Below, one piece after another: positions 7,331 through 48,682 of a stretch of DNA of 64,000 nt. The notes under the pieces were generated by a model, which was given only the letters and a program-made list of their open reading frames with translations, had not been told where the DNA came from and ran no database searches. The stretch lies in NCBI GenBank assembly GCA_037783415.1, contig JAZGTN010000011.1, forward strand, positions 1,054,001-1,118,000, given 5' to 3'. The position numbers were made by a program, and so were the translations under genes. This stretch comes from Leptasterias polaris. Lineage: Eukaryota; Echinodermata; Asteroidea; Forcipulatida; Asteriidae. How positions within the stretch are numbered: the stretch's first letter is position 1; each line of letters starts with the position of its first letter.

Positions 7331-7987
7331 GTTTTACTTTTCTTCTGTTAACTTGTGTTTTGCCTTTAAGTAAAAAAAAAAAAAAAAGATTTTAATGTCA
7401 AATTTTCTTTAACGTTATTGAAATACCCAGTTGCTTTTAACTAAAAACTTGATTTCTGTATTTTTTACCTTTTTTTTAATTGTAAATTGTTGCAGTTCAT
7501 CATGTGGCTGTTCATGACAAGTTTGTAAATAAACCATTCTATATAATAAATACAAAGTGGGATGATACCTTTTGTGTAACACAATGCTATACATGTAAGT
7601 GCTTGGAGTATTATTTATTATTATTAAGCAAAGATACTTAATCCAGATGTCTGTGAAAAAAAAATCTTCCTTACAACATCAGAAAATCAACTTCAATCCA
7701 AGTTCAAATCTCCCGTACAGTAACGCCCTTCCTGTTCTCAAGAGCTTATTGTATGATGCTGTGAGCAAGGATGAAATAAGTTTGATTGATCAGTTAAACT
7801 GTCAAAAATAACTGACACTTTCTTGTTATCACACTATCAGCTTTAAGTTATTGAATTCATTTTCTGAGTTCATCGTTTGGTAGCTCTTTGGATCTGTGTC
7901 AGTGGGTCTTTGCTCCAATGTGGATCGGTTAACACGAATCAACATTGTTTGCCTTCCACATCAAATAATTTAACTTTTTTGAGAACC

Positions 7988-8395
7988 TGTGGCGTGTTGT
8001 AGCCAAGCGGTTAAGAGCACTTGACTCAAGCTCTGGTGGTTCTGACCAGCAGAGTGTGGGTTCGAGTCTTGGTCTTGACACTTATGTCCTTAGGCGAGGC
8101 ATTTGTCTATTATTGCTTTGTTCTTTGGATGGGACGTAATGCCATGGGTCCTGCACGTGAAAGAACCCAGTACACTTATCATTAAGAGAAGGGGGATCAC
8201 CCCTGTGTTTTCTGGTATGGTTGGCTGCAGAATGTGCCACAACACCTTGTAATCCTGTACAAGGCGCTATGTAAATAAATGGGTCGTACATGTACATTAC
8301 AAGCATAGCTCCAAATATTTTGTAGAAAAAATAAGACACCCTTGGATGTGATAAAATGCTACACAAGAACTGCATTCTATTGTTATTATTATTAT
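7988..8395 (+). mobile_element. tRNA-derived SINE, family A (near full length)
   Basis: The head has tRNA-like A and B boxes (GTAGCCAAGCGGTTAAGAGC and GGGTTCGAGTC). The body carries the conserved AAAGAACCCAGTACACTTAT and AGAAGGGGGATCACCCC blocks, and the 3' tail ends in TTATTATTATTA. The same body occurs at least six more times in this window. Confidence 0.75.
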
Positions 8396-8560: not shown

Positions 8561-8862
8561 AAAATTGCTGACCTGGCCCATGATTCCCAAGCAGTGGGTA
8601 TCGATCGCCCACCCATGCACAAAGAAGCCCACAGCTTTGAGTTACCAGCTCACCAAGGGGCCTCGTTGAAGAACATACCTGGGAATTATGAACCGGACAT
8701 GCCCCCTCCCCGCGATGGACCAGGCGAGAATGGGGTACCGGTCAGAACCGGTCCAAGCGAGAAAGAGGCAGTCGAGAGGGGTATAAGGGAGTACGGTTTT
8801 AATCAATATGTCAGTGATAAGATATCATTGGACCGGAACATACCAGATCTAAGAAACGCCCA
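8561..8862 (+). CDS. GALNT7: GALNT7 exon a (stem region)
   Basis: The exon starts after a pyrimidine tract and ACAG at 8557-8560, in phase 0, and ends at donor CA|GTAAGT. It encodes 100 residues plus two bases of a split Gln codon. The segment is rich in Pro and Gly ([18 protein letters not shown]) and ends with [20 protein letters not shown], matching the end of the vertebrate GALNT7 stem (EFGFN, SLDRSV, DLR). The first Met in this segment is at 8615-8617, but the open frame reaches back to the acceptor, so translation should start in an upstream exon. A long inverted-repeat element begins about ten bases after the donor. Confidence 0.92.
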
Positions 8863-23800: not shown

Positions 23801-26800
23801 AACCTGGGCCCAATTTGCAAGTTGGATTTTGAATAATATCTGGTACAATGACTTGATTGGTTCACAAGTGAATTCTAAAATTGGATTCCCTGGAGTAAAG
23901 ACAATATTGCTATGTAAGATGGTTTCGGAGCAAGCTTCTGTTTAGCAACTTCCAAATGGGCAAAGCCAGTTACCATTGTGCAATACACATTTATTCAGAG
24001 TTGGGTATGGGTGTTTCTTGCTCTTACGTAGCTATCTAGAAGCTTGCCCCGAACAACGTGTTATAGCAACGCTCTCTTGTCGCGGGAATTGAAATTTAAG
24101 CGATAACTTGTGACTAAGCAAGTCATTGCACCAGACATTATTTAAATCTAACTCGCAATTGGCTTATTTCATAGAGCTGCTTAAGTGGAAAATTTGGCTC
24201 GATGACTTTATATGCTAAGCATATATTAGAAGTTAATCAGTCACAGACATTACATGTGGAGTAGTATTCTGGTGAGCAAAATTCTTTTGGGTTGAGGTAC
24301 ATTTTGTGCTTATGAGCAGCTCAACAATATTGGGCGCTACACATATCTCTGTTTTATTTGGATTTATTATTAAAGCTTCAGTTTTATTGTTATGAAACAG
24401 GCATCTCATCTTAAATGTTTTCATTTCAAACATTTACTATGTCAATTGTCAAGGTAACATTAGAATATTCATAAACAGGGTTTGTCAGAGTGTGAAATCC
24501 AAACTTGCACCTCATTAATATGTGACAACTTCATTGCAATTAATTCCATTTTAAGAACAACTGCATCGCCTGTGTCTACAATCGTTGATTCATTGACAAT
24601 ATTACACCTCAAAGTCACCTTTGTGTTTATTCACCGTTGGACCAAGCGTTTCATTCTCTTTGCTTCACAGGACAACAGCTGTGTGTCCCGTCATCGACGT
24701 TATCGACAACCAGAATTACAAAGTCTATCCACAGGGTACAGGAGACCAAGATCGAGGAGGGTTTGACTGGAGTCTGTACTGGAAACACTTTCCCATCCCA
24801 GAGTTTGAGCGAAAGAGAAGACGGTATGAGACAGAGCCATACAGGTGAGTTCAACACTTAATAACTAGTTCTTATATAGCGCATTTCACAATAACAAATC
24901 AATGCACTTTACATTAGTGCCCTGGTCATTGGGCCAATAACATTCCTTTAATCTTTCTCAGCTCCCTGGGGAGTATACAGCCCTGGGCTGCCGTGGCACT
25001 CCGAAGGCTTTTTCAAACACAAAATCAACCTCTACCCTTGCAGGTACCCATTTATACCCCTGGGTGAAGAGAAGCAAATATTATCTAAAGCAAAGTGTCT
25101 TTCTCAAGGACTTCTGAGCAGTCGTTTTCTCAGACCTTGAGCGAGTTCGAGTGCATACATTTAGTCGACCCATGGTTGACTACTGACTGGCAACGAACAT
25201 GCGCAGTGGCGTACATGTATTCACTCAAACGACTGGTTTGGAAGTCTAGTCAACCATCGGTACGGTATTCAAGTCGTTTTGCTACAGTGTCACTGGTTCC
25301 CTTCTGCACTTTACAAGGGGTTAGCATGAAACAAAGCTACTGGGACCAGGGAAGAAACCTGGGTCCTGAAGCTGGTTCCAAATGGTCAACCACAGTAGTC
25401 AACCAATGGTCGACCAGCCTTGTTTCGAGTCAAAATAGTTGACCTTTAGTTAACCATGGTGCGCACTCAAACTTGCTCCTTGTTTGTACTTTTCATGACT
25501 GGACTTCATTTGACTTTGCTGTAGAATACCAAAGTGAGGAAAACAAGTTTGTAGATGTTTTGATGTTGTTCGGCCTAAACACCACAGTAATAAATTAACC
25601 TTAAAGGTAGGGTCATATTGGTAAATACTCCAAATATGACTGACCATAAATACTTACTTGGTGAGAAGCACTGCAGCTGTTGATAGTAGAACTATGTTGA
25701 GAAAAGATTCCCTTTGAAGTAATATGGTTTGGATAATTGTTCACCTGAAAACAATTAATATGAGAAACGATTCATGCATAAATTGTTTATCAGATTTCTG
25801 AGGGTTAGTGTCCGTTCGTGAAAGAGAATGTTTGTTACAACTTTTGTGGATTTAAAAAAAAAGTGATAACGCTTGAAAGGTGAAATGGTTTTGCTTGGAT
25901 TATTACCCTATGGGCTTGCCAGTGCATACACAGATGTACCACACACAGAATGCTATTTGTGGCTATTTCCGGTGTGGAAGGAATTTTTAGATGTTTCACT
26001 GAAGCTGCTCAGAATGTACTGAGGCATGATACTCTTCCTTAAATTTGATTTCCAATTTTTTTCGGGGCCTTCAGAAAGATTAGCAAAATTGTTATGAAAT
26101 AGTCCGAAAAGTCTATTGAAGCCTATACCTTGTGTGTAATAAATAAATTTTCCAACTTTTTTCCAAGGGCCAAGTGTTATGCCTGTCAGAGCCAACTAAA
26201 TGCAAGAGATGTTACCATGTGGTTTTTGTGTGTTTTCTTTTTTTTGCAATCCCTCTCCTGATAGATTGCTATCAAGCTAAGTTTTAAACCCCTTTTTGTT
26301 GGTGTTTTGATATTATTGTTGCTTGAAATACCAATTTAATAATTTGCTGAAATTATGATTTTCAAATGTTATACTCTCAGATCACCAGCTATGGCCGGCG
26401 GTCTGTTTGCCATGGACAGAGAGTTTTTCTTTGAGCTTGGAGCCTACGATGATGGCCTGGAAATCTGGGGCGGGGAAAACTTTGAACTTTCTTTCAAGGT
26501 ATTGTAGACTCTATCGTCCTTAGAACCTGATAATGGCCCATTTGGTTTCTGTTAAAGGGCTTGCTCTCATAGTCTGGCTCAGAATTAGACCTTATGCACA
26601 TGACGTCATGTGAGTAGGGCGCCCTCATCAGGAGGTCAAAAGAAGGTTGCTCATGGGCCAATCTGGTGCACCGTGTGTACATAGATTAGGATTTCCATGT
26701 TTCATCATTGTTTTACCTTTAAGATGGTGGCTAGTGACGTCAATGCATAAGGTCCATTGCACCTACATGTATACTATTGCAAAAACGTGACCTACATGTG

Positions 26801-29800
26801 CATGCAATAGGTCACAGTGGTCAGGTGGTTAGACTGCAAGACCTACAATCGCAAGGTTGTGGGTTCGAATCCGGCCAAGCTAACTGCTGATTTCACAATG
26901 ACTAGAATAACTGGTAATGAATGGTTTATAGAATGCAGGCCTGATACTACACAATGGAGGCAATTGCCTCTATGCCCCTGATCATTGCCTTGGTGCTCCT
27001 TGAAATGTTAAAGCAGAATGTGTACATTTCTTTCATAGAGATGCCCTTAAAAATGAAGTAAAACTGCCTTGCCCTTGTAGGAACCAAGGATCAGGCATGT
27101 GAATGAGACTTGTTGGGTTACAAGGTGCTATGGTGAACGAGGCAACTTGATTACATTCATTACAGTCAGTATTTTAGTTAAATTCCTATCCCTCAGATCT
27201 GGATGTGTGGTGGATCCCTCATCTGGGTCCCTTGCTCCCGTGTGGGACATATCTATAGAATCCTCGGCAGGGTACCATACTCGGCTCCAAACGGAAACAT
27301 GGCAGTATTAAGTGAAATGGTAAGACACTTAATTCCTTAAAATCAGTGTGTAATCTAACCGTACTGTTGTTTTTTATCTTTGTTCATTGCGTGGCCTCAG
27401 CTGTGGATGTGTGGGGGCTCCCTACTGTGGATACCGTGTTCCCGTGTTGGTCACGTGTATCGGATTCATGGTAAGGTACCCTATTCAGCTCCTGGCGGAA
27501 GCATGATGGGGCTGAGCGAGAGGGTAAGATGGTTCCCACTCACTGTGGGTAGATTTCTCTCTCCTCTGGTGGATGGATTTCTCTAACCCTTCTCCTTTTT
27601 GGTTTAAGTTTTTCTGGAGTGTTTTCTTTTTGGATTTTTGTCATCTTTTTCCTGGATTTCTGCTTGATGTGCCATGAAGAATGATTATCTTATTCTGAAG
27701 ATTGTGCCTGACTTACTTTTTGTTATGCGGTGATTGTTTGGTTCAGATGTGAATCTGTTACACCCAGTCTTAATGGTTATTCAAACTATAATAACAATGT
27801 GGCCAAATCCCGCTGCCCCCCCCCCTCCTCCCCTCCCCCCACTCCCCTCCCCCCACTCCCCTGGTCCCTCCACCCCTACCCCTGGTTTCCCTCCCCAACT
27901 TTGTCAGTGTTGGCTCTCTTCTTGTGCGGTCTGTCCTTTTTTGACATTATCAACATTATGGGGGAGCGGGGGGACGGAGAGATTATGTTTTTGGTCAAAT
28001 GACCCAATAGTTTTGGTCACGGTTGTCTGAATTCAGGATTGAATTTTGGACAAACTTGAGAGTGGGGAACTTGGAGAGTGTGTTTATTGATACGTCCCCC
28101 CCACCTTAGGTTAAACCCATTGTTGGGGAAAGTTTAATGGGGGAAAGTCTCACTGGGTTGATTTTCTCGGTTTACGTAAATTCTGAGCATTGGCCGAAAG
28201 GATCATAACCTTGTCAGTCTGCAGCCACGTAGTATAAATATAAAAAAACTCTCTTTTGAACATTTCTAGTTTGCTCAAAAATTGTTTACAAAAATATCAG
28301 ACAGGCATGAGAATCTTCCGGTTTAAACCGGAATTCCATTTTTTTCCCTTTCAAATTTGTGGTCTTCGAGTTCAATGTGAATTTGATATAAAATTTGGGG
28401 GGTGAGTTGTTGGGGTATACATTTGGATCTCGCTAATCCCTCTTCTTGGTCTTATGAGAAATTGTAAGTTTACACGCTTCCGTTCGTAATAAATTGCCGC
28501 CCGGCAGCGGCCGGCCCAATATGCGTTGATTTGTTTCTTCCATGTGCATGCAGCGCGTTCAATTGATATCTGTAGACTTCTTTCAGTCTTTCCCCACTTC
28601 ATTCATGGTACGGTCCGGTTTGACCGTAATACATGTATGTTTACTGTTGCAGCAAAGGAACATTCGTGGAGACATTGAAAAGTCTACTGACAACAACGCG
28701 CGGTGTTTTGGATGCGCGCGCATCGTTATACGTTTTTTACCAGTCGTCATTACGCACCTTCATGGGCTTAAGTGCCGTTTCTTCGATACGTTAATGTGTT
28801 TTACGGCTGGAGATATTTTTACGCTTTGAACTATGACCTTGAAGAAACTTCTAGACAATGCATGAGTGTGCGACACACGTGCGGTGGGGAGATTCGTTGA
28901 TGTTTGCCGTCTCACATTATTTTTCCAAAATGCTATGGTTTATAAACTGTCGGGATCTTGGAGATACGAAAAGGTGTTTGAAGAACAAGTTTCAATGGCC
29001 AAAGGGGGGCAAAACTGAACACAAGTATAAGCCTTTTCGCAATCTCAGCGCGAAATGCATTGTGGTACTTTGGTCATAGGTCATTGGAGATAAACAAACA
29101 GTGTTGCCCCTAGCTACTCGTACTAGCGTGCACATTGTGAATAGCCAAATCGCATAATATTGACCTGATAGTATCGCTGAAAATGAAGTTTTTTCGCCGT
29201 TTTTTCACTCAATGGTGCATAGAAATGCATCTGAACTTACTTTCGAAGAGATTAGACTTTGGAATGAGGATGCTTTGAAGGATTTTCTTGGCAAACTGGA
29301 AATTACTGTTGGGCCCCAAATACAAAAAAAAACCATGACAATTTGGGGGTGTACATTTACTAGTTGGCCCTTGAAAAAGTAAATTTTTGCATGAATGAAA
29401 TTTTGATGGCCCAAAGTGGTGGCATTGGGCAAGCGAGCTTATTCTAAACATATTAAAAACGAGTGTGCTAATAGACTTGAAATGTTGCCTATCATGTTTA
29501 ACTATATTTGCAGTATTACGTTGTTTTTTAACATTTTTACTCATGGTAAACACTTGGTAAATACATTTCAAATTTTCAGAAATTCATATCATTTATTGTA
29601 ACATTTTCACAACTCTGTTCCTTTTTTTGCCAAACATACAACGTATCAAGCATTATGTACATGTAGTGCAATATTTGGTAAAATTTATTGTTTGCATATA
29701 ATGTTTAGATACAGTTAACTTGCAGCTGTTTGAAATAGTGCAGACCATATATTTTGAAATATTTCTTGTTTTTTGCAATAGTAAATTGGTGACATTGTGA

Positions 29801-32800
29801 TGATGTCAAGTGCTATTATTTTAGAACTAGGTAAGTAGCTGTCTCTCCGACATGAGCAAACCGATATCTTGATTTCATACACATTAAGTCTTGTTTATAT
29901 TTACTTTCTTCACAAACAATATCACTCATTACTAGCCGTCGTTACGCGATGCCGCGTATTGTTTATCTCCAGAAACTCGTCGACAGGCAATTCCCGCGCA
30001 TGCGCACTGAGATTGCGAAAAGGCTTATTCACTATCACAGGTAAAAAGACCCACCAAAAATCAAAATTGGTAACAATTAAAAGCATGACCGCTCCGTTCA
30101 TAATCATTTATTTTCGTGGAAGCAAGTTCCGAATATCATTTTATTTTGAGCTTAAGACAATATACGTCTAGCACTGTTATGATTTCATCTTTTTTTAAAG
30201 TATTTTCTTCCTATATATAAACAGGTCCTCGATCCCACACATGGTCCCCAAAACGCCATAGGGATTCACCCAGTGCGACGCTGACGCCTGGGTAAACTTG
30301 CCCAAATTCCGGACACGCAAAATATTCAGACTTTGCCCAAAATCTGGACATGCAATTTTTAGCGTTAAATTTTTCCGTTTTTTTTTTATCATCGCATATT
30401 CTCATGCCTGATCAGAGCAGCCTAGCATACACCATTCAAGTGATGGCGTTTGTTGATGAATTCTCACAAATGTTTATGCAGCGTGAATGGAAATGCCTGG
30501 CTGCTTCTGAGTGCTTCTGCTGTAAGGTGGGAAGTGCCAGCCATGCTTTTCCATGCCTACTGTGCATTGCTTGCTTGGTTTGTTTACATTGTATACCCAC
30601 TATGAGTATAGTGACTCTGGTCGCCGATTGTGTCTATTGCTGTCAATTCTGAACACTCCCTTGAGCATCTAGTGAGGTAAATTATTTTGTTTGCGATTTT
30701 CTTTTCTTTTTTTGTGTTGAATGACTGTTGCTAATTCTGTGCATTTGATTCCCGGTTAAACTGCAGAGCTTAAATGTCTCTATTTGAACCCTTACTGTTA
30801 CTTTCCCTCCGTTTTATTCTTTAAATAAACACAACTAGCTCGAAATCATTTTAAATTTATTTGGCTGTTATCAAATCTTACATTTTTGTGTGTGAATGGA
30901 AATTGTTATGGTGTTCTCATTTTTTCTTCCAAGACGTCGAAGCATGTATCCTATTTGTGAATAATTTTTGTATTTATGAACTGATCAAACTACAAATGTA
31001 CAAATGTAGAAGGTTTTCATCAACCTTGTTCTCAGAGGTGATTGGCTCCAGTGGGCTTAACCACTCGGCCACAACATGCCACCTTATGCATAACATGTAT
31101 ACATTATTTTGATATTACTTGCTGTCCTTTTTCAATGTGTAGTTTAGTTAATGCAAGATTGCAAGATTCTCTGGCATTAACACATGAGATCCCTTGGGCC
31201 TTTTTCAATGTGTAGCTAACACTTGAGATCTGGAGTTCCTTTTTCGCATTGTGCAGCTAACACATGAGATCTGAAGTTCCTTTTTCATTGTGTAGCTAAC
31301 ACATGAGATCTGAAGTTCCTTTTTCATTGTGCAGCTAACACATGAGATCTGGATTTCTTTTTTCATTGTGTAGCTAACACTTGAGATCTGGAGTTCCTTT
31401 TTCATTGTGTGGCTAACACATGAGATCTGAAGTTCCTTTTTCATTGTGTAGCTAACACATGAGATCTGAAGTTCCTTTTTCATTGTGTAGCTGACACATG
31501 AGATATGGAGTTGCTTTTTCATTCTGTTGCTAACACATGAGATATGGAGTTGCTTTTTCATTCTGTAGCTAATGCATGAGAGTTTGATTTCCTCTTTCAT
31601 TGTGTAGCTAACACATGAGATCTGGAGTTCCTTTTTCATTGTGTAGCTAACACATGAGATCTGGAGTTCCTTTTTCGCATTGTGCAGCTAACACATGAGA
31701 TCTGAAGTTCCTTTTTCATTGTGTAGCTGACACATGAGATATGGATTTCCTTTTTCATTCTGTTGCTAACACATGAGATATGGAGTTGCTTTTTCATTCT
31801 GTAGCTAATGCATGAGATTTTGAGTTCCTCTTTCATTGTGTAGCTAACACATGAGATCTGGAGTTCCTTTTTCATTGTGTAGTTAACACATGAGATCTGG
31901 AGTTCCTTTTTCATTGTGTGGCTAACACATAAGATGTGGAGTTCCTTTTTCATTGTGTAGTTAACGCATGAGATCTGGAGTTCCTTTTTCATTGTGTAGT
32001 TAACATATGCGATCTGCAGTTCCTGTTTCATTGTGTAGTTAACACATGAGATCTCAAGTTCTCGGTATCTCTCCTCTACATGTATGTTCTGCAACAGGAC
32101 TTCAAGGTGCAGTGTTGCCTTTGGACTAGTTCCCTTTCTCTGGTTTGGTCTTAAGTTTTGCGTATGTACACAACAGAACTGAATTTAAATGCTAGCTGCG
32201 CAAAAGTGAAGACTCCTTAGTCATGCAGGCACAGAAGTAAAACTTCCACGCATAAACATACATGTACACCAAAGATTATAGTGCACCAAAGGTGCAGGAT
32301 GGGAGAACTATTTATTGTTTGTACGTGCAATACGCATGGGTGCCATTTCAGCAAGCAAATGTTACATCATTGATAGCAATGATAGAGTTGCTTGCTGAAC
32401 GTCCAGTGCACATTTCAGCCAGAATACCCCATATTGCGCCATTGGTGCTCTGTAATCTTTGATGTGCACTTTCATAGGCTTAGAATGACTTTAGCTTACA
32501 GTATGCAACACTCAAACATTTTACCCTGGTGTAGGTCTCATGCACCATCCTCCAAGTCAAACATTTTACCCTGGTGTAGGTCTCATGCATCATCCTCCAA
32601 GTCAAACATTTTACCCTGGTGTAGGTCTCATGCATCATCCTCCAAGTCAAACATTTTACCCTGGTGTAGGTCTCATGCACCATCCTCCAAGTCTAAATCT
32701 CATTCTTGTCTTGAACACCCAAGTCTCAATTGCGTCATCAATTGAAACATGTCTCCTTTTTTTTCAGAATTTGAAGCGTGTTGTAGAAGTCTGGTTTGAC

Positions 32801-35800
32801 GAGTACAAAGAATATTTCTACCGCAGTAAACCAGAGGCCCTGCTGGTCTCTGCAGGAAACCTAGACAAACAGCTGGAGTTCCGTCGTCAGAAGAAGTGCC
32901 GATCGTTCTCTTGGTATATGAGTGAGATTGCGCCAGATATTGTGGATAAGTTTCCTCTACCTGCAGCCAATATACAGTGGGGCGAGGTGAGTGCAGACAC
33001 TCGTTAAATGCTTTTTAATTTGAGAAAAGATACAGTAGTGATTTGCAGTCAGTTCAAGGTATGTACAACTAACCTGGGGATAATGTTATCTAACATTTAT
33101 TAATACTCCATCAAAGGCAACCTCAATCCTCCAATATCCTTGTCTGTTATGTCACTCCACACTAAAATGTTTGAACATGACCTACAAATATTAATTCTAT
33201 CCACGTGTCATTCCACTCTGGAACATCCTACCAGTAGCAGCAGTTACAGCGCCAACACACCAAGGCTTCATTTCGGCAGCTCTACCAGCCATATAGGTGT
33301 CTGCCAACTGCTACATGTACCTCCAGTCATAGGTGGCAATCCATCTTGGGCTGATTCTTTTTAACCGCACCTTTTATATTCTCTCCTTTGTTCTTTTGTT
33401 CTTCCAATTTGTTGATCACCTTTATTGTAAATACTTGCACTTGGACCGCACTGCACCGCTAGACATCCGGGACAGCAAGTTTTGCATATAAGGATGAACA
33501 AGTATCAAGTATCAAGTATGCCTTGCCCAGTGTTAAACAAACTGTTAGTTTGGCCTACAGTCCTCAATCTTCCACAATCAGCCAACTTCCTGATGTTGGA
33601 GGATTTGGGAGGGTTGGGATCAATCTTGTCAACTACTTCCGCCAGGAAGTCTGAAAAAATATCTGGGCTCACCTGCAGGATTAGTTTTTTTAGAATATTT
33701 TTGGGGGAGAATATTATTGTCACAATGAAACCTTGACTTAAACCAAGTAAAGACAACTAGCGTTCTCATAAAATGTGCCAGGCCTTCTTTATTTCTTTCA
33801 AGAAAATGTGGCTTTTGTTCACCTTGAATTGTTGAATTGGGTGTCAGTTGATAAGGTATTATTGTAATCCACGTGGTTTTATGTATTCTGAAGAAATAAC
33901 TCAACTTTTGGAATTGTGTTTCAGGTGAGAGTAGTGGGAGGTCATGTGTGTGTGGATTCGATGGGTCAGAAGGATGGTGGTAAGGTCGGTATGTCGTACT
34001 GCCATGGTGCTGGTGGCAATCAGCTCTTTAGAGTCACACAAGACGGCCAGTTACGCATTCATGATCAATGTGCCTATAAATCTTCATCTGACGTCAGGTT
34101 ACGACGGTGCGACACTACGAGGTATCAGTGGGTTTATAACTCGGTGAGTTTGATCATAACAAATTTATAATCATAATCATAAATTAATCATACTCATTTC
34201 TGATTCATGCTTCCATCTTGATCCAGAGACTTCCAGTGGATTAAGAAAAGTGAGACTATAGGAGATGTAAAGGGATAGTTATTGAGACAAATATCAATGA
34301 GGGAATAAAAGAGTGGAGAAAATCTGCTAAACAGCCGTTTAAAACCCGCAGGGTTGGGTCTGTCCGATAAAGGACCGAGCCGAACACAAGGTCCTTTATT
34401 GCACGGCCACAACCCTGCAAGGTTTTAATCAGCCATTTAAGACGAAGTCACCACTCTTTTATTCCCATTCTTAAATACCTTTCTCTTAACAACCTTTACA
34501 AATTTAGAACAAATCTGATAGGTTAGCCTCAGCTCGCTTAGACTCTTTGCTGAATTTCTATTTATGTTGAGCGCTCTGTAGCTCTTTGCGCAAGTTTAAA
34601 ACTTGCATTCTTAAGTTTCAAACTATCGCATGTAAGTTTTTAAACTTACAAGGGCCAAGTATGCGACCTACCAACTTGGGCCGTGTATGCGACCTACCAA
34701 CTTGGGCCGTGTATGCGACCTACCAACTTGGGCCGTGTATGCGACCTACCAACTTGGGCCGTGTATGCGACCTACCAACTTGGGCCGTGTTTGCGACCTA
34801 CCAACTTGGGCCGTGTATGCGACCTACCAACTTGGGCCGTGTATGCGACCTACCAACTTGGGCCGTGTATGCGACCTACCAACTTGGGCCGTGTATGCGA
34901 CCTACCAACTTGGGCCGTGTATGCGACCTACCAACTTGGGCCGTGTATGCGACCTACCAACTTGGGCCGTGTATGCGACCTACCAACTTGGGCCGTGTAT
35001 GCGACCTACCAACTTGGGCCGTGTATGCGACCTACCAACTTGGGCCGTGTATGCGACCTACCAACTTGGGCCGTGTATGCGACCTACCAACTTGGGCCGT
35101 GTATGCGACCTACCAACTTGGGCCGTGTATGCGACCTACCAACTTGGGCCGTGTATGCGACCTACCAACTTGGGCCGTGTATGCGACCTACCAACTTGGG
35201 CCGTGTATGCGACCTACCAACTTGGGCCGTGTATGCGACCTACCAACTTGGGCCGTGTGTGCGACCTACCAACTTGGGCCGTGTATGCGACCTACCAACT
35301 TGGGCCGTGTATGCGACCTACCAATTGGGCCATGACATTTGCACGCTCCACAAAACCATCGTGTAGCGCCCTCTTTTTCTTCAGGCCATGTTTAAACACT
35401 TCTCACTGTGTTTATACTGTGTTTATATCATACATTTAAACATGGCCACGTGATCTCCTCTTGACCAATCAGAATGGATCAACTGTCCCAGGTACTTATG
35501 AATAAAGAGTATAATTAGTTGCTTCAGGTCCAATCAGGAAATGCTTAAATGCTTTACAATTCGAGGAGGCATTGGTGATAGATTAAGTAGTAACTTCATT
35601 CTACCCCTAGTGCACGCTTTCAAGTTGACAGAACATATTGCTGCCAATCTTTTGCTCGTTCTAGCCAATGCTCCCTCTTCACGACTGCATAATGTCTTTC
35701 GCTATAAATCGTGCAAGTCTCTCGCATAATCGAACATTGAGACCATTACAGTATGTGAGTTTGTCTCCTTCACACGCGTTAAAGCAATGTACGTGGGACC

Positions 35801-36861
35801 AAAGTGGGCCCAAAAGTGTTTGAATATACGCGAGACTTGCACGGTCTATTGCTGTCAACACTTTGCTAGTATCGTTTTTTGTTTTTGGATTTTTTGTGTG
35901 TGGGTTTTTTTTGGGGGGGGGGGGGGGGGTTCTTTACCATGTTTACAGTACTCAGTAAGTCTTTGAATACCCAAACTACAAACAGATCTCACACACAGTT
36001 GGTTGGCCTCGTTTTGCTTTGGCAATACATGGTTATGTTTTGGAAATCTGGTCAATGTAACACAACCATGGAAGTTGGCCCCATGCTTTACCTCTATACT
36101 CTGCCAACAGGACCATAACTTATTGTACTGACCCAACATTGGTTACTGAGCAATTCCTCACTCAACCAATTTTCAGTGTGAATTTAATGAAGTGAGGAAA
36201 TCAGAGGAAAACTGGAGATGGTTAGAGCTATACAGGCATCGATAAGTGAGGGACGTTGTCCTGTCCCCCCACCTTTAAGAAGGGTGGTGACTAGCATATA
36301 TGACTTCCCCCATTTGTGATTGCCCTTTTAAAATATGCTAAATACAATAACAAATACACAGCATTTCGGTGAAGGAGAATGTTTGTTGTGAACAAAACTT
36401 TAAGTGATAACGCTGGAATGGTGAAATGGGTTTGCTTGGATTATTACCCTATGGGCTTGCCAGTGCATACAAAGATGTACCACACACAGAATGCTATTTG
36501 TGGCTATTTCCAGTGTGGTAGGAAATTGTGTCTCCCGAAACCAACTCTCCAAGGAATGGGGTAACCCTCTCACAAACTTAACTAGATTGTTTCCCACCAT
36601 GCAAAGTTTCAAGTCTTGAAAACAAAGATCACTTGTGATCTTACTACCATTGATTGCTTGTACGTACATCATTATAAATACATTATTCTTGCATTTTTTT
36701 CTTTCCTTTCTTTTCAGAACACACAAACATTATACTTAGAAGATCTACATGAATGTCTAGATCACAGACCAGCCACAAAAGAGGTTTATATGACAGCGTG
36801 TGTGCCAGACAAAAGAACACAACAATGGGAAATATCGGCAAAGGGACTCAAACATCATTGA
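8561..36861 (+). CDS. GALNT7: Polypeptide N-acetylgalactosaminyltransferase 7, gene span (N-terminal exon missing)
   Basis: Nine spliced coding segments (one present as two alternative exons) give 1680 nt, that is 559 residues plus a stop. GALNT7 is a type II Golgi enzyme that transfers GalNAc from UDP-GalNAc to Ser/Thr, preferring peptides that already carry GalNAc. The order seen is: stem region; GT27 catalytic domain with the Mn-binding D-A-H triad (fragment residues 207-209), an IWGGENFE block (314-321) and a VGH histidine (343); then a C-terminal ricin-type lectin domain (about 440-559). Diagnostic GALNT7-like strings are CKYWHY at the exon 1/2 junction, [13 protein letters not shown], and [12 protein letters not shown]. 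Vertebrate GALNT7 is about 657 aa, so roughly 100 N-terminal residues (cytosolic tail, signal anchor, proximal stem) are missing. They may lie upstream of the window or be unrecognised within 1-8500. All junctions are GT-AG and keep frame. The introns are full of transposon remnants and minisatellites. Confidence 0.95.
8873..9476. mobile_element. Foldback/MITE element abutting GALNT7 exon a
   Basis: About 240-bp arms are inverted copies of one another (left GGAAGGGAAATGAACAATTC, right end GTCATTTCCCTTCC). They share TTAAAATGGTGTAAATTG and ACATTTTTGTATGGGGATG blocks. The element starts only about ten bases after the splice donor. A related half-element lies at 40435-40700. Confidence 0.7.
9477..10129. 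other. GALNT7 intron, no feature seen
   Basis: Unique-looking AT-rich sequence between the foldback element and the hairpin-ended repeat. Short overlapping minus-strand frames at 9455-9716 look spurious. Confidence 0.5.
10774..11112 (+). pseudogene. THAP-domain protein fragment (transposon-derived)
   Basis: From 10789 the frame reads [20 protein letters not shown], then [20 protein letters not shown]. CxxxxC, W and CxAHF are the C2CH zinc-site residues of a THAP DNA-binding domain, found in P-element and other transposases and their domesticated relatives. There is no ATG in frame before the zinc knuckle because a stop lies just upstream at 10771. The tail after the domain is short, ending in TAG at 11110. 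It is most likely a dead transposase piece rather than a gene. Confidence 0.6.
11282..11631. mobile_element. MITE with near-perfect 100-bp inverted repeats
   Basis: The left arm 11282-11381 (CAGGGTGTTTAGATAATCTT...) and right arm 11532-11631 are inverted copies at 99 of 100 positions, with a 150-bp AT-rich centre. The near identity of the arms indicates recent activity or gene conversion. It is nested in an older transposon remnant. Confidence 0.75.
11640..11945 (-). pseudogene. Acidic minus-strand frame, possible transposon protein N-terminus
   Basis: The minus strand from 11945 reads [12 protein letters not shown], later [30 protein letters not shown] and after a stop/frameshift [11 protein letters not shown] and [13 protein letters not shown] Ser/Asp/Glu-rich start followed by RFEPL looks like the beginning of transposon-associated proteins common in marine invertebrates. 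I cannot assign it firmly. It is broken. Confidence 0.35.
12405..12600 (+). repeat. Dispersed repeat family 6, copy 1
   Basis: CCGGGGTGCTCCACAAGGAA and AGAGTGCTCCACAAGGATGC recur in reverse orientation at 52425-52612, including the neighbouring GGAGACCAAGGACAAAACAA block. Confidence 0.65.
12601..14175. other. GALNT7 intron, no gene seen
   Basis: Contains a G-rich run near 13616 and several overlapping frames (for example 13247-13579 minus, rich in Ser/Phe/Pro) on both strands without family resemblance. Confidence 0.5.
14176..14922. repeat. Minisatellite with 124-bp higher-order unit (4 x 23 + 32)
   Basis: The 23-bp unit GCTTCATCACTGGTCCAATG+CTC is repeated four times and followed by a 32-bp variant containing TGTAATGAACACTGTGAGGC. 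The 124-bp set is repeated about five times, then the last part is 23-bp units only. The array leaves plus-strand frames open (up to 148 codons) but those are artefacts. Confidence 0.92.
15310..15395 (+). mobile_element. LINE/SINE 3' tail
   Basis: The sequence GCGCCTTGAGCACCTTTGG followed by a TGCACTTTATAAGACTTTG-type end and ATT repeats recurs near 61790 and 19321 and is the shared 3' terminus of retroposons in this genome. Confidence 0.55.
15396..15575 (+). mobile_element. Non-LTR retrotransposon C-terminal fragment
   Basis: One frame reads [20 protein letters not shown], stop, [20 protein letters not shown] and [17 protein letters not shown]. The GRPxxTWLDxLxxDTGL and ML/QDRxxWR pattern is the common C-terminus of RTE-like and related reverse transcriptases. 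It is a dead fragment with a stop. Confidence 0.7.
15690..16215 (-). mobile_element. tRNA-derived SINE, family A
   Basis: A reverse copy. The tail with GCGCTCAAATCCGTCACTCA is near 15720, the body with AAGTGCACTGGGTTCTTTTA at about 15920, and the tRNA-like head near 16130-16215 (GAACTCGAACCCACACTCTG). It lies just upstream of GALNT7 exon b. Confidence 0.68.
16384..16550 (+). CDS. GALNT7: GALNT7 exon b (catalytic domain start)
   Basis: The acceptor is CCAG at 16380-16383 and the donor is AAAAG|GTCAGT. The exon completes the Gln codon and continues [19 protein letters not shown], then [20 protein letters not shown] and [10 protein letters not shown]. This is the first beta-strand and the nucleotide-sugar-binding VDDxS region of the GT-A fold. 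The CKYWHY string distinguishes GALNT7 from most other GALNT paralogues. The exon ends with one base carried into the next. Confidence 0.95.
17113..17326 (+). CDS. GALNT7: GALNT7 exon c (DxH metal site)
   Basis: The acceptor is ACAG and the donor is AATAG|GTAAGA. The reading frame enters with one carried base and gives [30 protein letters not shown] and [14 protein letters not shown]. The D-A-H triad is the Mn2+/UDP-binding motif of GT27 enzymes. NEKREGLIR corresponds to the RxERxGLIxAR family motif. The exon leaves two bases (AG) that join with G to make Arg. Confidence 0.95.
17354..17710 (-). mobile_element. MITE family 2 (AAAGGNARGTATACGTTTGG ends)
   Basis: The reverse orientation of the element at 40094-40434. 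The ends read GTATACATTTGG and CCAAACGTATACCTTCC. Shared internal blocks are TCTGAGAAACATTA, GGGATTATTCTTCCTGC and CCACCTTTTGAAAT. Confidence 0.68.
17711..19200. other. GALNT7 intron, no gene seen
   Basis: Mostly AT-rich. A less AT-rich block at about 18730-18930 (GGGAAACGATTGCCACCTCT to GAATCACAGACTAG) has no clear frame and could be an old repeat or a conserved element. Confidence 0.45.
19213..19320. repeat. 36-bp tandem repeat (three copies)
   Basis: TTTGCAGGAGCGCCATGAGC plus CTCACTGAGTGACGGA is repeated three times, followed by a SINE-like TGTGCGCTATATAAG end and ATT/AGT microsatellite. It is probably an expanded SINE tail. Confidence 0.8.
19384..19412. repeat. Hairpin end of CCGGAAGT-type repeat
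   Basis: GTTTCGGC, loop GTGATA, GCCGAAAC, preceded by TTATTATTA and followed by TAGTGTTTTCGTCAAGATT. It is homologous in layout to the hairpins at 10130 and 49724. Confidence 0.5.
19496..20941. repeat. Cluster of poly(C) tracts
   Basis: Uninterrupted C runs of 14-16 bases lie at 19496-19511, 20532-20546, 20800-20814 and 20928-20941. Similar C or G runs occur at 35913-35929 (G), 52353-52370 (C, 18) and 59971-59991 (G, about 20). They are potential i-motif/G-quadruplex formers and error-prone for sequencing. Confidence 0.85.
21189..23180 (-). mobile_element. 5'-truncated LINE (CR1/L2-like) with reverse transcriptase
   Basis: A minus-strand frame from 23126 to 21258 encodes 622 residues of a non-LTR retrotransposon polyprotein. 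Visible RT blocks are [64 protein letters not shown] and the catalytic [10 protein letters not shown]. The C-terminal part ([53 protein letters not shown]) is typical of the CR1/L2 group. The frame is open upstream of the Met to a stop near 23175, so the apurinic endonuclease domain is missing. This is ordinary 5' truncation. The 3' end (about 21189) reads GCGCTATATAAATCCCGC followed by a short ATT repeat on the minus strand. With no internal stops it appears young. Confidence 0.93.
21258..23126 (-). CDS. LINE reverse transcriptase ORF (partial ORF2)
   Basis: An uninterrupted frame of 622 codons within the truncated LINE. It contains an intact RT palm with F/YADD, thumb and the C-terminal region. 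The N-terminal endonuclease is absent, so it cannot be autonomous. The native start codon is unknown, and the Met used here is merely the first in frame. Confidence 0.9.
   Translation of the reverse strand: MDQLKHVNHLIEAAKRAYFANKLNNANTKSVFRTVGTLLNKNTKPRPTCESNLILSNNFSDFFYDKIATIRNNLDNQIDQDDHNHFPIPVIEFSAPALDFEESSEDEIRHIICSSANKSCSLDLIPTWLLKATVDSFLPVITHLVNTSICTGTFPDSLKHAIITPVLKKPSLDNNVLANYRPVSNLPFLSKVIEKVVVSRITSHLDDHNLWESHQSAYRSGHSTETALLAIKNDIMLALSESKGVFLVLLDLSAAFDTLDHHILLQRLSQSIGLSTNAISWFSSYLTNRTCRVSIDGELSRIQSLDYGVPQGSVIGPLLFTIYIKPIGDIIRKHGLLFHIYADDTQIYCPFNPKSTDSIQATLNKLSACIMDLKRWMTQNKLKLNNTKTEFLIAASTHTLRTLPPIALDLGEAEITPSQSVRNLGVFFDASMSMSSHIINLSRSVHFQLRNISRIRRFLDFESCHQVIRALVLSRLDYGNSLLYGVTEQNLDKLQRLQNRAARLLFSVDRRVSASPLLSQLHWLPVRQRIIFKIALHIFKCLHNTAPQYLNHFICPYVPGRSGLRSCYDETWLSVSRSRNSFSDKAFSISGPKLWNNLPRHLRTLDTVSTFKKYIKTHLFPV
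23181..24670. other. GALNT7 intron, no gene seen
   Basis: Holds a diverged GGGCCCAATTT phrase (about 23808) and TTTCATAGAGCTGCTTAAG (about 24168) resembling MITE family 5 ends about 360 bp apart. The rest is unassigned. Confidence 0.45.
24671..24844 (+). CDS. GALNT7: GALNT7 exon d (catalytic core)
   Basis: The exon follows TTCACAG and ends TACAG|GTGAGT. It encodes [40 protein letters not shown] and [13 protein letters not shown]. It matches the GALNT7 segment with CPVIDVI and the FDWSLxW motif shared by all GalNAc-transferases. Other readings of this DNA in shifted frames are shadows. The two trailing bases (AG) combine with A of the next exon to give Arg. Confidence 0.94.
24865..25110 (-). 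mobile_element. SINE, body type B
   Basis: It starts about 20 nt after the GALNT7 exon d donor with TTCTTATATAGCGCATTTCA and continues with the block CAGCTCCCTGGGGAGTATAC. The reverse complement of the same block occurs in the plus-strand copy at 38330-38660. Confidence 0.6.
25138..25480. mobile_element. Inverted-repeat element (about 340 bp)
   Basis: GAGCGAGTTCGAGTGCAT on the left and GTGCGCACTCAAACTTGCTC on the right are inverted. CCATGGTTGACT and AGTTAACCATGG lie just inside. There is no protein, and one plus-strand frame of 115 codons here is spurious. Confidence 0.5.
25590..25830 (+). repeat. Dispersed repeat family 3 (copy 1)
   Basis: TAGGGTCATATTGGTAAATAC through ATTCCCTTTGAAGTAATAT to AGATTTCTGAGGGTTAGTGT. 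It is closely similar to 55309-55540. It runs into the 145-bp repeat that begins at about 25835. Confidence 0.6.
25835..25985 (+). repeat. 145-bp dispersed repeat, copy 1
   Basis: Almost identical to 36367-36527, sharing for example CTTGGATTATTACCCTATGG and TGTACCACACACAGAATGCT. Both copies lie in GALNT7 introns. Confidence 0.7.
26381..26498 (+). CDS. GALNT7: GALNT7 exon e (WGGEN catalytic motif)
   Basis: The acceptor is CTCTCAG and the donor is TTCAAG|GTATTG. It encodes [20 protein letters not shown] and then [19 protein letters not shown]. The GGLF and WGGEN(F/I)E motifs belong to the acceptor and UDP-GalNAc site of GT27. The exon ends in phase 0, so either of the two following 123-nt exons can be joined without changing frame. 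Confidence 0.95.
26585..26757. mobile_element. Small MITE (about 170 bp) with CRE-like ends
   Basis: GACCTTATGCACATGACGTCA (26588) and TGACGTCAATGCATAAGGTC (26735-26754) are inverted copies. Each contains a TGACGTCA octamer, the CREB/ATF consensus. It lies in the intron after GALNT7 exon e. Confidence 0.62.
26805..26885 (+). mobile_element. tRNA-like SINE head
   Basis: A-box-like GTGGTCAGGTGGTTAGAC and B-box GTGGGTTCGAATCCGG are separated by tRNA-like distance. There is no clear cloverleaf acceptor stem, so a retroposon head is more likely than a tRNA gene. Confidence 0.5.
27197..27319 (+). CDS. GALNT7: GALNT7 alternative exon f1 (active-site loop, version 1)
   Basis: This is a 123-nt, phase 0-0 exon: CTCAG acceptor, ATG|GTAAGA donor. 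It encodes 41 residues beginning [20 protein letters not shown] and ending with the [10 protein letters not shown] region. The His of VGHxYR corresponds to the third Mn ligand in GALNT structures, and the residues after it form the mobile loop over the active site. It is homologous to the next exon at 30 of 41 residues. The vertebrate GALNT7 segment here is also 41 residues with the same [15 protein letters not shown] skeleton. Only one of f1 and f2 is needed for a normal-length protein. Confidence 0.92.
27401..27523 (+). CDS. GALNT7: GALNT7 alternative exon f2 (active-site loop, version 2)
   Basis: This is a second 123-nt phase 0-0 exon: CCTCAG acceptor, AGG|GTAAGA donor. It lies 81 nt after exon f1. 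It encodes [20 protein letters not shown] followed by [13 protein letters not shown] and ends GLSER. Eleven of 41 residues differ from f1, and seven of the eleven fall after the Mn-binding His, in the loop. The frame is open with good splice sites on both sides, so it looks functional. The 81-nt spacer is short enough that splicing f1 to f2 may be sterically disfavoured, which fits mutually exclusive use. Because the length is divisible by three, inclusion of both would lengthen the protein without frameshift. Confidence 0.88.
27524..29027. other. GALNT7 intron after the alternative exons, no gene seen
   Basis: Contains the C-rich stretch, one ATCTTCCGGTTTAAACCGGA palindrome at about 28315 related to the 340-1460 array, and a GC-rich CCGGCAGCGGCCGGCC at about 28502. 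No coding exon was recognised. Confidence 0.5.
27815..27895 (+). repeat. C-rich polypyrimidine stretch
   Basis: CCCCCCCCTCCTCCCCTCCC-type sequence about 300 bp after GALNT7 exon f2. It could bind polypyrimidine-tract or poly(C) proteins, but that is only a guess. Frames reading PPPPLPP across it are spurious. Confidence 0.7.
29028..30027. mobile_element. DNA-transposon-like element, 1.0 kb
   Basis: TAAGCCTTTTCGCAATCTCA at 29028 is matched inverted by CTGAGATTGCGAAAAGGCTTA ending 30027. Further inside, GGAGATAAACAAACAGTG and its inverted partner TTGTTTATCTCC continue the arms. No transposase is visible. It lies in the intron after exon f2. Confidence 0.65.
30028..31196. other. GALNT7 intron, no gene seen
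   Basis: AT-rich. A fragment of a SINE head (GGGCTTAACCACTCGGCCAC) sits near 31050. The frame at 30350-30652 is Cys-rich but has no known match and no splice context. Confidence 0.45.
31197..32075. repeat. 39-bp minisatellite (about 22 copies)
   Basis: The unit TTCATTGTGTAGCTAACACA plus TGAGATCTGGAGTTCCTTT repeats with point variants. A block of several units is itself duplicated. Because 39 is divisible by three, the minus strand shows two long frames of 144 and 152 codons (repeat [13 protein letters not shown]) that I regard as artefacts. It is located in the intron before GALNT7 exon g. Confidence 0.9.
32511..32695. repeat. 45-bp minisatellite (four copies)
   Basis: CAAACATTTTACCCTGGTGT plus AGGTCTCATGCATCATCCTCCAAGT is repeated four times with a single C/T variant. 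It ends about 75 bases before GALNT7 exon g. Confidence 0.9.
32768..32986 (+). CDS. GALNT7: GALNT7 exon g (end of catalytic domain, linker)
   Basis: The 219-nt exon has a TTTTCAG acceptor and a GCGAG|GTGAGT donor, phase 0-0. It encodes [20 protein letters not shown], then [20 protein letters not shown] and ends IQWGE. EVWxDEYK-YFY closes the GT27 domain in every GALNT. The KCxSFxWYM segment and the PLP(A/P)xNxxWGE linker are GALNT7-like. A 45-bp minisatellite sits just upstream in the intron, and the 39-bp minisatellite lies further upstream. Confidence 0.95.
33090..33500 (+). mobile_element. LINE 3' fragment
   Basis: The frame around 33195-33300 gives [20 protein letters not shown] and [10 protein letters not shown], the FFPRxIxxWNxLP signature of LINE C-termini. 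The element ends with a short GTATCAA repeat near 33520. It lies in the GALNT7 intron between exons g and h. Confidence 0.65.
33925..34143 (+). CDS. GALNT7: GALNT7 exon h (lectin repeats alpha and beta)
   Basis: The 219-nt exon follows TTTCAG and ends AACTCG|GTGAGT, phase 0-0. It encodes the first two beta-trefoil repeats of the ricin-type lectin domain: [18 protein letters not shown] with the C-x-D sugar motif retained, then [12 protein letters not shown], then DQCAYKSS where the Asp of the CLD motif is absent. Vertebrate GALNT7 likewise has CIDSM in alpha and a degenerate beta motif. The lectin domain guides the enzyme to already glycosylated substrates. Confidence 0.94.
34658..35332. repeat. 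26-bp minisatellite (about 26 copies)
   Basis: GTATGCGACCTACCAACTTG plus GGCCGT is repeated almost without change. Only two copies differ (TTTGCG at about 34789, TGTGCG at about 35258). All three plus-strand frames stay open for up to 250 codons because the unit lacks stops. These are not genes. It lies between GALNT7 exons h and i. Confidence 0.95.
35383..35520 (+). repeat. Dispersed repeat family 8, copy 1
   Basis: GTTTAAACATGGCCACGTGATC and TTGACCAATCAGAATGGATC recur at 43345-43425 in the same orientation. An inverted GGCCATGTTTAAAC lies at its left edge. Confidence 0.55.
35703..35851. mobile_element. Short MITE, TIR family 1
   Basis: Ends carry CGTGCAAGTCTC on the left and the reverse complement CGCGAGACTTGCACGG on the right. 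The inner right part (GTGGGACCAAAGTGG) resembles the corresponding region of the 711-bp element, so it is probably a deletion derivative. Confidence 0.62.
36367..36527 (+). repeat. 145-bp dispersed repeat, copy 2
   Basis: The second copy, in the intron before the terminal exon, in the same orientation as copy 1 and about 10.5 kb away. Confidence 0.7.
36718..36861 (+). CDS. GALNT7: GALNT7 terminal coding exon i (lectin repeat gamma, stop)
   Basis: The acceptor is TTTTCAG and the exon is open to TGA at 36859-36861. It encodes 47 residues: [37 protein letters not shown] and a basic tail ending KHH. ECLD is an intact gamma-repeat CLD motif and QQWEIS is the closing QxW. The vertebrate protein ends at an equivalent point (KCLDRS, QKWEM). 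The 3' UTR follows directly. Confidence 0.94.
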   Translation, partial: NTQTLYLEDLHECLDHRPATKEVYMTACVPDKRTQQWEISAKGLKHH

Positions 36862-48111: not shown

Positions 48112-48682
48112 GTAGTAAGCCTAATTAGCTAGTCTCTGTCCTTTCTCTACAGCTCAGTAGTACTAGTAGGCAAGTAGGACTAGGAGTAGCTACTAATTAT
48201 CATGATTTACATGATTATGTTGCTGCATAAATTATTCAGATTCAGAAGAGGCAAGCCAGGAAAAACTCATCAAAATGAACAATTAATTAAATCATCTTAT
48301 CATTCTTTTATGTACTATTTATTAACGATCAAAAAACCTAAAAACACTCACGAAATTCACAGCCTAGCCACAGCAGTCAGTACGCCTATAATGTATTGTT
48401 ATCAAACAAACACACACACAACAATCCTGGCTAGAATTAGTCACTTTGCTCTATTGTCGATGAGGGCGCTCCCCAAAATATTTGTGCTTATCAAAAGAAC
48501 TTCTTAAAAAATATTTATTTTGTTAATTTTAATAGCAAATAAACAACATTTTATTTCCAATAGTAAATTTTAATACAAATTTCAATATAATTCCTTTGTT
48601 AAAATTTAAGAAAATATTAAATTATGATAGTTTTTTAGCACAAATTGAAGAATCTTTGTGGTTATGGTTCTCAGAGTTCAAG
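48112..48682 (+). promoter_or_regulatory. PDCD2 upstream region (possible divergent promoter)
   Basis: About 570 bases upstream of the PDCD2 ATG contain no coding sequence on either strand. The 100 bases before the start are AT-rich with no clear TATA box at a standard distance. Because an unrecognised gene runs leftwards from about 46.8 kb, the interval could serve both genes. Its left edge is bounded by a MITE. Confidence 0.3.

What the first reader, a model, noticed from the sequence alone, without database searches (positions are those of the whole stretch)
27197..27523. Tandem alternative exons swap the active-site loop of GALNT7
Two adjacent 123-nt phase 0-0 exons encode alternative versions of the same 41-residue segment (30 identical positions). 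Each has good splice sites, and only 81 nt separate them. The segment carries the His ligand of Mn2+ and the mobile loop that closes over UDP-GalNAc and peptide. Four of the eleven differences are conservative core positions (I/L, V/I), while seven fall in the loop (L/H, R/K, N/G, N/S, A/M, V/G, M/R). This looks like a built-in switch of peptide or glycopeptide specificity in one gene.
Basis: partly seen in the sequence, partly recalled or inferred. Interest (0 to 1): 0.8.

Follow-up and report, generated by a model that had tools for sequence, protein, structure and literature searches.

The report
Swappable active-site exon in starfish GALNT7
A starfish gene for a sugar-attaching enzyme carries two neighbouring copies of the exon that shapes the mouth of its active site, and a related starfish is recorded as using one copy or the other, probably so that one gene can make two enzyme versions with different targets.

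Summary
Exons f1 (27197-27319) and f2 (27401-27523) are 123 nt each, phase 0-0, 81 nt apart, 30/41 residues identical, in a ten-exon stretch of the GALNT7 gene of a sea star close to Asterias. Synonymous change between them is saturated (pS 0.87), non-synonymous change is not (pN 0.16). The decisive evidence is the related Asterias amurensis: its database isoforms X1, X2 and X3 carry f1 (41/41 identical), f2 (39/41) or neither; none listed carries both. So exon substitution looks old and real, though I saw no RNA reads. The differences spare the Mn-ligand His and loop Arg/Tyr and fall in the core, the flexible loop and the start of the next helix, one at the equivalent of peptide-contacting Ser373 of GalNAc-T2. 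A branch-point match 39 nt from the f1 donor, below the ~50 nt steric limit, could enforce exclusivity. The kind is known: Drosophila pgant5 swaps a segment starting at the equivalent residue and so changes substrate preference. Apparently new: the same segment is multiplied in amphioxus GALNT7 (five variants), while vertebrate GALNT7 has two versions of exon d, on the other side of the peptide groove. Altered peptide specificity is likely but untested.

The parts
8561..8862 (+). GALNT7 exon a (stem region; enters phase 0, ends phase 2)
   Evidence: matches Asterias amurensis P0007, splice sites AG/GTAAGT
16384..16550 (+). exon b (start of GT-A domain, SVIIVFHNE)
17113..17326 (+). exon c (LDAHCE, D-x-H metal motif)
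24671..24844 (+). exon d (GGFDW, equivalent of GalNAc-T2 F280/W282 peptide contacts); single in this window, present in two alternative versions in vertebrate GALNT7
26381..26498 (+). exon e ([11 protein letters not shown]...[10 protein letters not shown]), common upstream exon
27197..27319 (+). alternative exon f1 ([41 protein letters not shown])
   Evidence: 41/41 identical to A. amurensis isoform X1
27320..27400 (+). 81-nt intron between f1 and f2; best branch-point match ATCTAAC with A at 27358, 39 nt from the f1 donor and 43 nt from f2; weaker candidate at 27376 (57 nt from the donor)
   Evidence: approximate, recalled weights
27401..27523 (+). alternative exon f2 ([41 protein letters not shown])
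   Evidence: 39/41 identical to A. amurensis and A. rubens isoforms X2
32768..32986 (+). exon g ([14 protein letters not shown]..., common downstream exon, end of catalytic domain and linker)
33925..34143 (+). exon h (first part of the lectin domain)
36718..36861 (+). exon i (end of lectin domain, stop codon)

Best explanation
This is a pair of tandem-duplicated, mutually substitutable exons in the GALNT7 gene of a sea star close to Asterias. Splicing joins exon e to f1 or to f2 and then to g. (Shown: two intact exons with splice sites, and sister-species isoform records with each. Inferred: that the window species uses both.) The result is two GalNAc-T7 enzymes identical except for 41 residues that carry the third Mn ligand (unchanged), the flexible loop that gates UDP-GalNAc and peptide, and the start of the following helix. 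Joining f1 to f2 would keep the reading frame, so frame does not enforce exclusivity. A strong branch-point match only 39 nt from the f1 donor probably makes f1-to-f2 splicing difficult by steric hindrance, as in OGDH and alpha-tropomyosin (inferred). The swap probably retunes acceptor peptide or glycopeptide preference while donor and metal chemistry stay the same, as shown for Drosophila PGANT5A/B (inferred here).
For: Exon anatomy, phase and frame. 30/41 aa and 83/123 nt identity, pS 0.87 against pN 0.16, no residual similarity in the flanking 60 nt (38% and 32%): an old duplication that kept its protein sequence. No Asterias form with both (about 650 aa) among the 49 hits or the 120 best of 6230 hits. 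The A. amurensis f1 and f2 isoforms are predicted with nearly the same secondary structure and the same mean confidence (85.8), the loop block being the least certain part of the folded domains (63 and 61); the best solved matches of the f1 model are human GalNAc-T7, 49-50% identical. f34 (N/S) aligns with GalNAc-T2 Ser373, which hydrogen-bonds peptide. PGANT5 precedent with kinetics. Branch-point match ATCTAAC scores highest of those within 150 nt upstream of the ten exons and lies 39 nt from the donor; reported limit about 50 nt.
Against: No RNA reads and no genomic DNA of another sea star could be examined; X1/X2/X3 are database records whose support I did not see. A. amurensis X3 skips both exons, so splicing is not strictly one-or-the-other. 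f2 is not unusually conserved: 2 of 41 residues differ from A. amurensis, against 4 of 224 in exons b-e and 17 of 559 over the whole f1 isoform. A weaker branch-point candidate lies 57 nt from the donor, above the limit, and 356 of 5000 shuffles of the intron's inner bases reach the same best score; the weights were recalled, not trained, and the ~50 nt limit comes from vertebrates. PGANT5's key residue (D/K419) aligns with f22, which is Ile in both f1 and f2, so the published mechanism does not transfer residue by residue. Most changes are modest.
Confidence: 0.75

Rival explanations
1. The exons are alternative, but the swap tunes overall activity, stability or loop dynamics (or, by skipping both, makes a catalytically dead form) rather than substrate choice.
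For: A. amurensis X3 lacks the exon and with it the third Mn ligand. In PGANT5 the helix differences changed activity with similar effects on charged and neutral substrates (passage of section 9). Three of the seven outer differences here lie at the start of that helix.
Against: Four differences lie in the gating loop, one at a peptide-contact position; PGANT5 loop residues changed preference between peptides.
Confidence: 0.25
2. Only one copy is used; the other is a decaying duplicate.
For: No expression data for the window species; f2 differs from A. amurensis f2 at 2 of 41 residues, more than its neighbours.
Against: Both have intact frame and splice sites, pN is far below pS, and both occur as separate isoform records in A. 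amurensis.
Confidence: 0.04
3. Both exons are always included together, giving an enzyme with a doubled segment.
For: Double inclusion keeps the frame; models with two copies of exon d exist in vertebrates and one with four f copies in Branchiostoma belcheri.
Against: No such Asterias isoform in the lists; it would repeat a core beta strand and the metal ligand; the intron has its best branch-point match very close to the donor.
Confidence: 0.03
4. f2 (or f1) is an assembly artefact.
For: None beyond the tandem arrangement.
Against: The copies differ at 40 of 123 nt, 25 of them third codon positions, their flanks are unrelated, and f1 and f2 versions occur in A. amurensis records and f2 in A. 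rubens.
Confidence: 0.01

Closest known systems
Drosophila pgant5A/pgant5B (GalNAc-T1 orthologue; preprint PMC12776162: outline, abstract, passages and section 7 read)
   Same: Alternative splicing swaps the segment with the catalytic flexible loop and the helix-turn-helix after it. Its first residue (398) is equivalent to f residue 1 (T1 327, taking the numbering of the 559-residue chain 8v9q_A as that of GalNAc-T1). The swap changes peptide preference, and the A form predominates in salivary glands.
   Different: T1-type, not T7-type, enzyme; the differing region is 60 residues, not 41; the deciding residue (D/K419) is not one of the f1/f2 differences. The main text does not use the word exon, so its gene anatomy was not checked.
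Drosophila pgant9A/B (PMC6115407, passages read)
   Same: Splice switch in a GalNAc-transferase that changes substrate choice.
   Different: Swaps about 30 residues of the lectin domain (exon 8A/8B), not the catalytic loop.
Amphioxus (Branchiostoma) GALNT7 isoforms
   Same: Same gene, same 41-residue segment (40 in one variant); two isoform pairs compared differ only there.
   Different: Five variants: three seen in separate isoforms, two only in one model that strings four together (P0055). Chordate and echinoderm/hemichordate segments separate at support 100 and the five variants group at 84, so the duplication is independent of the sea star one. Seen as protein only; exon borders inferred.
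Vertebrate GALNT7 alternative exon d
   Same: Same gene, equal-length isoforms that differ in one catalytic-domain segment; forms with both and with neither also exist.
   Different: A different exon, carrying the equivalent of GalNAc-T2 F280/W282 on the other side of the peptide groove. Seen as protein only.
Tandem duplicated exon substitution events, including GALNT13, Pgant5, gly-5 (PMC9741552, passages and section 17 read)
   Same: Same class of event and same enzyme family; the paper describes such events as arising convergently in vertebrates, arthropods and nematodes.
   Different: Main text names GALNT13, not GALNT7, and no echinoderm or amphioxus; its supplement was not readable here.
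OGDH exons 4a/4b (PMC7969005, passages read) and alpha-tropomyosin (recalled; cited in those passages)
   Same: Short intron between exclusive exons with branch points close to the 5' splice site (25-41 nt in human OGDH, 46 in a fish).
   Different: Branch points mapped by experiment there, only predicted here.

Membership tests
GALNT7 / GalNAc-T7 (ppGalNAc-T, GT27) | Closest overall relatives are GalNAc-T7 | tested here: met
   97% identical to A. amurensis 'N-acetylgalactosaminyltransferase 7-like' X1; best solved structures of the X1 model are GalNAc-T7, 49-50% identity
GALNT7 / GalNAc-T7 (ppGalNAc-T, GT27) | Mn ligands D-x-H plus the third His; loop Arg | tested here: met
   LDAHCE in exon c; H and R of CSRVGH(I/V)YR in both f1 and f2; invariant columns D257, H259, H393, R396 in 35 aligned proteins
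GALNT7 / GalNAc-T7 (ppGalNAc-T, GT27) | C-terminal ricin-type lectin domain | tested here: met
   exons h and i align over their length with the sea star homologue, which carries PF00652
GALNT7 / GalNAc-T7 (ppGalNAc-T, GT27) | Prefers partly glycosylated acceptor peptides (recalled; also the title of a reference seen) | not testable with these tools
   needs enzyme assays
Tandem duplicated exon substitution event | Adjacent homologous exons, same phase, interchangeable in frame | tested here: met
Tandem duplicated exon substitution event | Each exon used in separate transcripts | tested here: inconclusive
   database isoforms X1, X2 and X3 of A. amurensis; no transcripts of the window species
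Tandem duplicated exon substitution event | Mutual exclusivity | tested here: inconclusive
   no double-inclusion form in the lists, but a double-skip form exists (P0049); branch-point distance 39 nt, rival candidate at 57 nt
PGANT5-type catalytic-loop switch | Swapped segment begins at the residue equivalent to f1 residue 1 and covers the flexible loop | tested here: met
   f1 residue 1 aligns with residue 327 of the GalNAc-T1 chain 8v9q_A; PGANT5 398 = T1 327 from the S420/A349 equivalence
PGANT5-type catalytic-loop switch | Changes substrate preference | not testable with these tools
   needs kinetics
PGANT5-type catalytic-loop switch | Charge change at the residue after the loop Arg | tested here: not met
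   that residue (f22) is Ile in both f1 and f2

The most novel reading that the evidence does not exclude
The exon for the gating loop of GalNAc-transferases is a recurrent site of splice-coded specificity. Copies of it arose independently in sea star GALNT7 (two), amphioxus GALNT7 (at least five) and, with the same start point, a T1-type enzyme of flies. Vertebrate GALNT7 reached the same end by doubling the neighbouring exon d on the other wall of the peptide groove. GALNT7 would then be a gene whose substrate range is repeatedly set by splicing rather than by making more gene copies.
Probability: 0.6. Interest if true: 0.65.

Novelty: new member of a known kind. Interest (0 to 1): 0.52.

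Why it matters
How some twenty similar GalNAc-transferases choose their targets is an open problem. Here nature offers matched enzyme pairs that differ in 11 positions (sea star) or 6 and 14 (the two amphioxus pairs compared) around the gating loop, and other pairs that differ in exon d (vertebrates). These are ready-made swaps for testing which residues set peptide or glycopeptide choice. The recurrence in several lineages suggests that loop swapping is an easy and favoured route to new specificity. The human GALNT7 'exon 6' event reported in endometriosis (PMC13039441) may be the vertebrate exon d case; this is an inference, exon numbers were not matched here.

Tried and rejected
Assembly duplication: rejected because the two copies differ mostly at third codon positions, their flanks are unrelated, and A. 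amurensis records hold both versions and A. rubens the f2 version.

A third f copy, or a second copy of exon d, in the window: searched in six frames, none above background.

Frame-based exclusivity (double inclusion giving a stop): rejected, all four splice combinations stay in frame.

RNA families in 26381-32986: none at the gathering threshold. tRNA genes in the window: none called. Counts of TGCATG and four other motifs gave nothing to build on.

Dating the duplication by an exon tree failed: f2 groups with Acanthaster at only 64; Acanthaster shares 35/41 residues with f1, 33/41 with the window's f2 and 35/41 with Asterias f2. The duplication is older than the split between the window species and Asterias; whether it is older than Acanthaster is open. 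The Acanthaster record is itself labelled isoform X1, and database clusters may hide further isoforms, so a single form fetched from another echinoderm is not evidence that it has one exon.

Literature: ten searches. Four showed their full hit list (1, 12: 17, 38: 8, 39: 3 papers); the other six showed the top 12-20 of 53 to 8,200. In what was listed I saw no paper on alternative catalytic exons of GALNT7 in echinoderms, amphioxus or vertebrates. The one listed paper that treats GALNT7 splicing is PMC13039441 (exon 6 skipping in human lesions; passages read). Main texts searched for GALNT: PMC4465641 (none), PMC9741552 (GALNT13 only), PMC5740500 (none), PMC7969005 (none). No supplement could be read.

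The first two submissions of this report were not filed: one was sent back for the required check, one did not fit the form.

Full report
What is there. Exons f1 (27197-27319) and f2 (27401-27523) lie between exon e (26381-26498) and exon g (32768-32986) of a GALNT7 gene on the + strand. The rest of the gene was built from motif matches and then from the closest homologue: a 8561-8862, b 16384-16550, c 17113-17326, d 24671-24844, h 33925-34143, i 36718-36861 with the stop. The first coding exon was not found in the window. f1 and f2 are 123 nt each, both phase 0-0, separated by 81 nt; the other eight introns of this stretch measure 562 to 7521 nt.

More than chance, and old. f1 and f2 share 30 of 41 residues and 83 of 123 bases; 25 of the 40 base differences are at third codon positions; a Nei-Gojobori count gives pS 0.87 (saturated) and pN 0.16, and the 60-nt flanks are no longer alike (38% and 32%). 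The match scores 184 against a best background of 36 in the six frames of the window, and no third copy stands out there.

Both copies are recorded as used in a sister species. A protein search drawn on the f2 region found 49 proteins among 149 candidates. A. rubens X2 (P0001) also has f2; an A. rubens X1 was not in the lists. Over 559 aligned residues the window differs from A. amurensis X1 at 17 positions, so the window is a different but close sea star. In the same comparison exons b-e differ at 4 of 224 residues, f1 at 0 of 41 and f2 at 2 of 41: f2 is not slower than its neighbours. No Asterias form of about 650 aa with both exons appears among the 120 best of 6230 hits of a full-length search. 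These are database records; I saw no reads.

Direction of change. Against six other echinoderm sequences, one form fetched from each (Acanthaster, Amphiura, Strongylocentrotus, Diadema, Anneissia, Antedon; the unnamed P0008 was left out), f2 changed at positions 1 (I to L), 11 (V to I), 23 (L, or M in one, to H) and 32 (N to G); f1 changed at 34 (S to N), 36 (L/M to A) and 41 (R to M). Positions 9, 19, 25 and 37 are not polarised, though the window's G at 37 of f2 is in none of the six nor in Asterias f2 (M). Each copy has therefore moved away from the ancestor at its own sites. The exon tree does not resolve whether the duplication came before or after the split from Acanthaster.

Where the differences lie. 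The segment aligns with GalNAc-T2 residues 342 onward. The third Mn ligand (H359) and the loop Arg (R362) are the same in f1 and f2, and so is the Tyr aligned with Y367. Four differences are conservative core positions (1, 9, 11, 19). Four (23, 25, 32, 34) lie in the flexible loop that in GalNAc-T2 runs from Arg362 to Ser373 (PMC4432651, passages); position 23 falls in a two-residue insertion whose exact placing is uncertain. f34, N in f1 and S in f2, aligns with Ser373, which hydrogen-bonds peptide there. Three (36, 37, 41) are at the start of the next helix. AlphaFold models of A. amurensis X1 and X2 have the same mean confidence (85.8) and nearly the same secondary structure; the block of the loop (residues 401-410) is at 63 and 61, the lowest of the folded domains. 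The models were not superposed. The best solved matches to the X1 model are GalNAc-T7 structures 6iwr and 6iwq; the X2 model was not searched.

How exclusivity could be enforced. All four splice combinations keep the frame, so nonsense-mediated decay cannot do it. In the 81-nt intron the best branch-point match is ATCTAAC, with its A at 27358, 39 nt from the f1 donor and 43 nt from f2, inside an AG-free stretch of 54 nt. Its score, 6.5, is higher than any other within 150 nt upstream of the ten exons (next 5.9). Work on OGDH (PMC7969005, passages) and a survey of human exclusive exons (PMC5740500, passages) use about 50 nt as the steric limit. Against this: a weaker candidate (4.2) lies 57 nt from the donor, 356 of 5000 shuffles of the intron's inner bases reach 6.5, although only 14 of 26444 heptamers in the gene's introns do, and the weights were approximate and recalled. 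X3 of A. amurensis fits a system that fails towards skipping.

What it most likely does. Drosophila PGANT5A and PGANT5B differ by alternative splicing within residues 398-457, which hold the catalytic flexible loop and a helix-turn-helix; one loop residue changes kcat/KM on positively charged mucin peptides, and the A form, not the B form, partly rescues salivary granules (PMC12776162, abstract, passages and section 7). Residue 398 corresponds to GalNAc-T1 327 and hence to f residue 1 (chain numbering of 8v9q_A taken as that of GalNAc-T1), so the fly segment begins at the same place. The deciding fly residue corresponds to f22, Ile in both forms here, so the principle may carry over but not the exact residue. 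I rate altered acceptor preference as likely, and altered activity or loop dynamics alone as the main rival.

A wider pattern. That makes five distinct versions; three are seen in separate isoforms, two only in P0055. In the exon tree all chordate segments separate from the echinoderm and hemichordate ones at support 100, and the five amphioxus versions group at 84 (ultrafast bootstrap, 21 short sequences), so that expansion is independent of the sea star one. In the vertebrate proteins the f segment is of one kind, but equal-length isoforms of the same species differ only in exon d in four of the 14 pairs that I compared (P0102/P0109, P0130/P0142, P0122/P0156, P0098/P0138); a fifth same-species pair, P0096/P0112, differs in exon d and at the C-terminus. 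Among 242 fetched proteins 12 carry two d motifs, and several mammalian forms of 595-596 aa lack the motif. Exon d holds the GGFDW motif; in GalNAc-T2 F280 and W282 bind peptide. The hit lists are at most the best 120 of each search and the database is clustered, so these counts show presence, not frequency; exon borders in amphioxus and vertebrates are inferred from protein.

Verdict. Real, well supported and precedented: a new member of a known kind, with an interesting pattern of repeated invention around it. The specificity step and the regulation remain untested.

Noticed in passing
P0102/P0109, P0130/P0142, P0122/P0156, P0098/P0138, P0056-P0061, P0063: Vertebrate GALNT7 has two alternative versions of exon d; some models contain both, some mammalian forms lack the motif. 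The solved human GalNAc-T7 (6iwq) carries the second version.
   Followed up: partly
P0055, P0066, P0067, P0068, P0072: Amphioxus GALNT7 has at least five versions of segment f.
   Followed up: partly
window 21258-23186, - strand: 642-codon open frame with a reverse transcriptase domain (RVT_1, E 1.9e-34) in the intron between exons c and d; a retroelement.
   Followed up: no
window 48536-49330, + strand: Open frame with a MYND zinc finger, perhaps an exon of the next gene.
   Followed up: no
window 31178-32061: 39-bp tandem repeat, 22.6 copies, in the f2-g intron; several copies contain CTAAC.
   Followed up: no
window 32512-32693: 45-bp tandem repeat, 4 copies at 98%, ending 74 nt before exon g.
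   Followed up: no
window 34652-35331: 26-bp tandem repeat, 26 copies at 98%, in the h-i intron, open in all three + frames.
   Followed up: no
window 14193-14922: 124-bp higher-order tandem repeat made of 23-bp units.
   Followed up: no
window about 26815-26880 and about 8000-8070: By eye, tRNA-like boxes (GGTTCGAATCC, GGTTCGAGTC) that ARAGORN does not call; possibly tRNA-derived SINEs, one of them in the intron before f1.
   Followed up: no
P0053: Fasciola gigantica model of 888 aa with two CSRVGH segments and a repeated catalytic stretch; could be a misassembly or a fused tandem gene.
   Followed up: no
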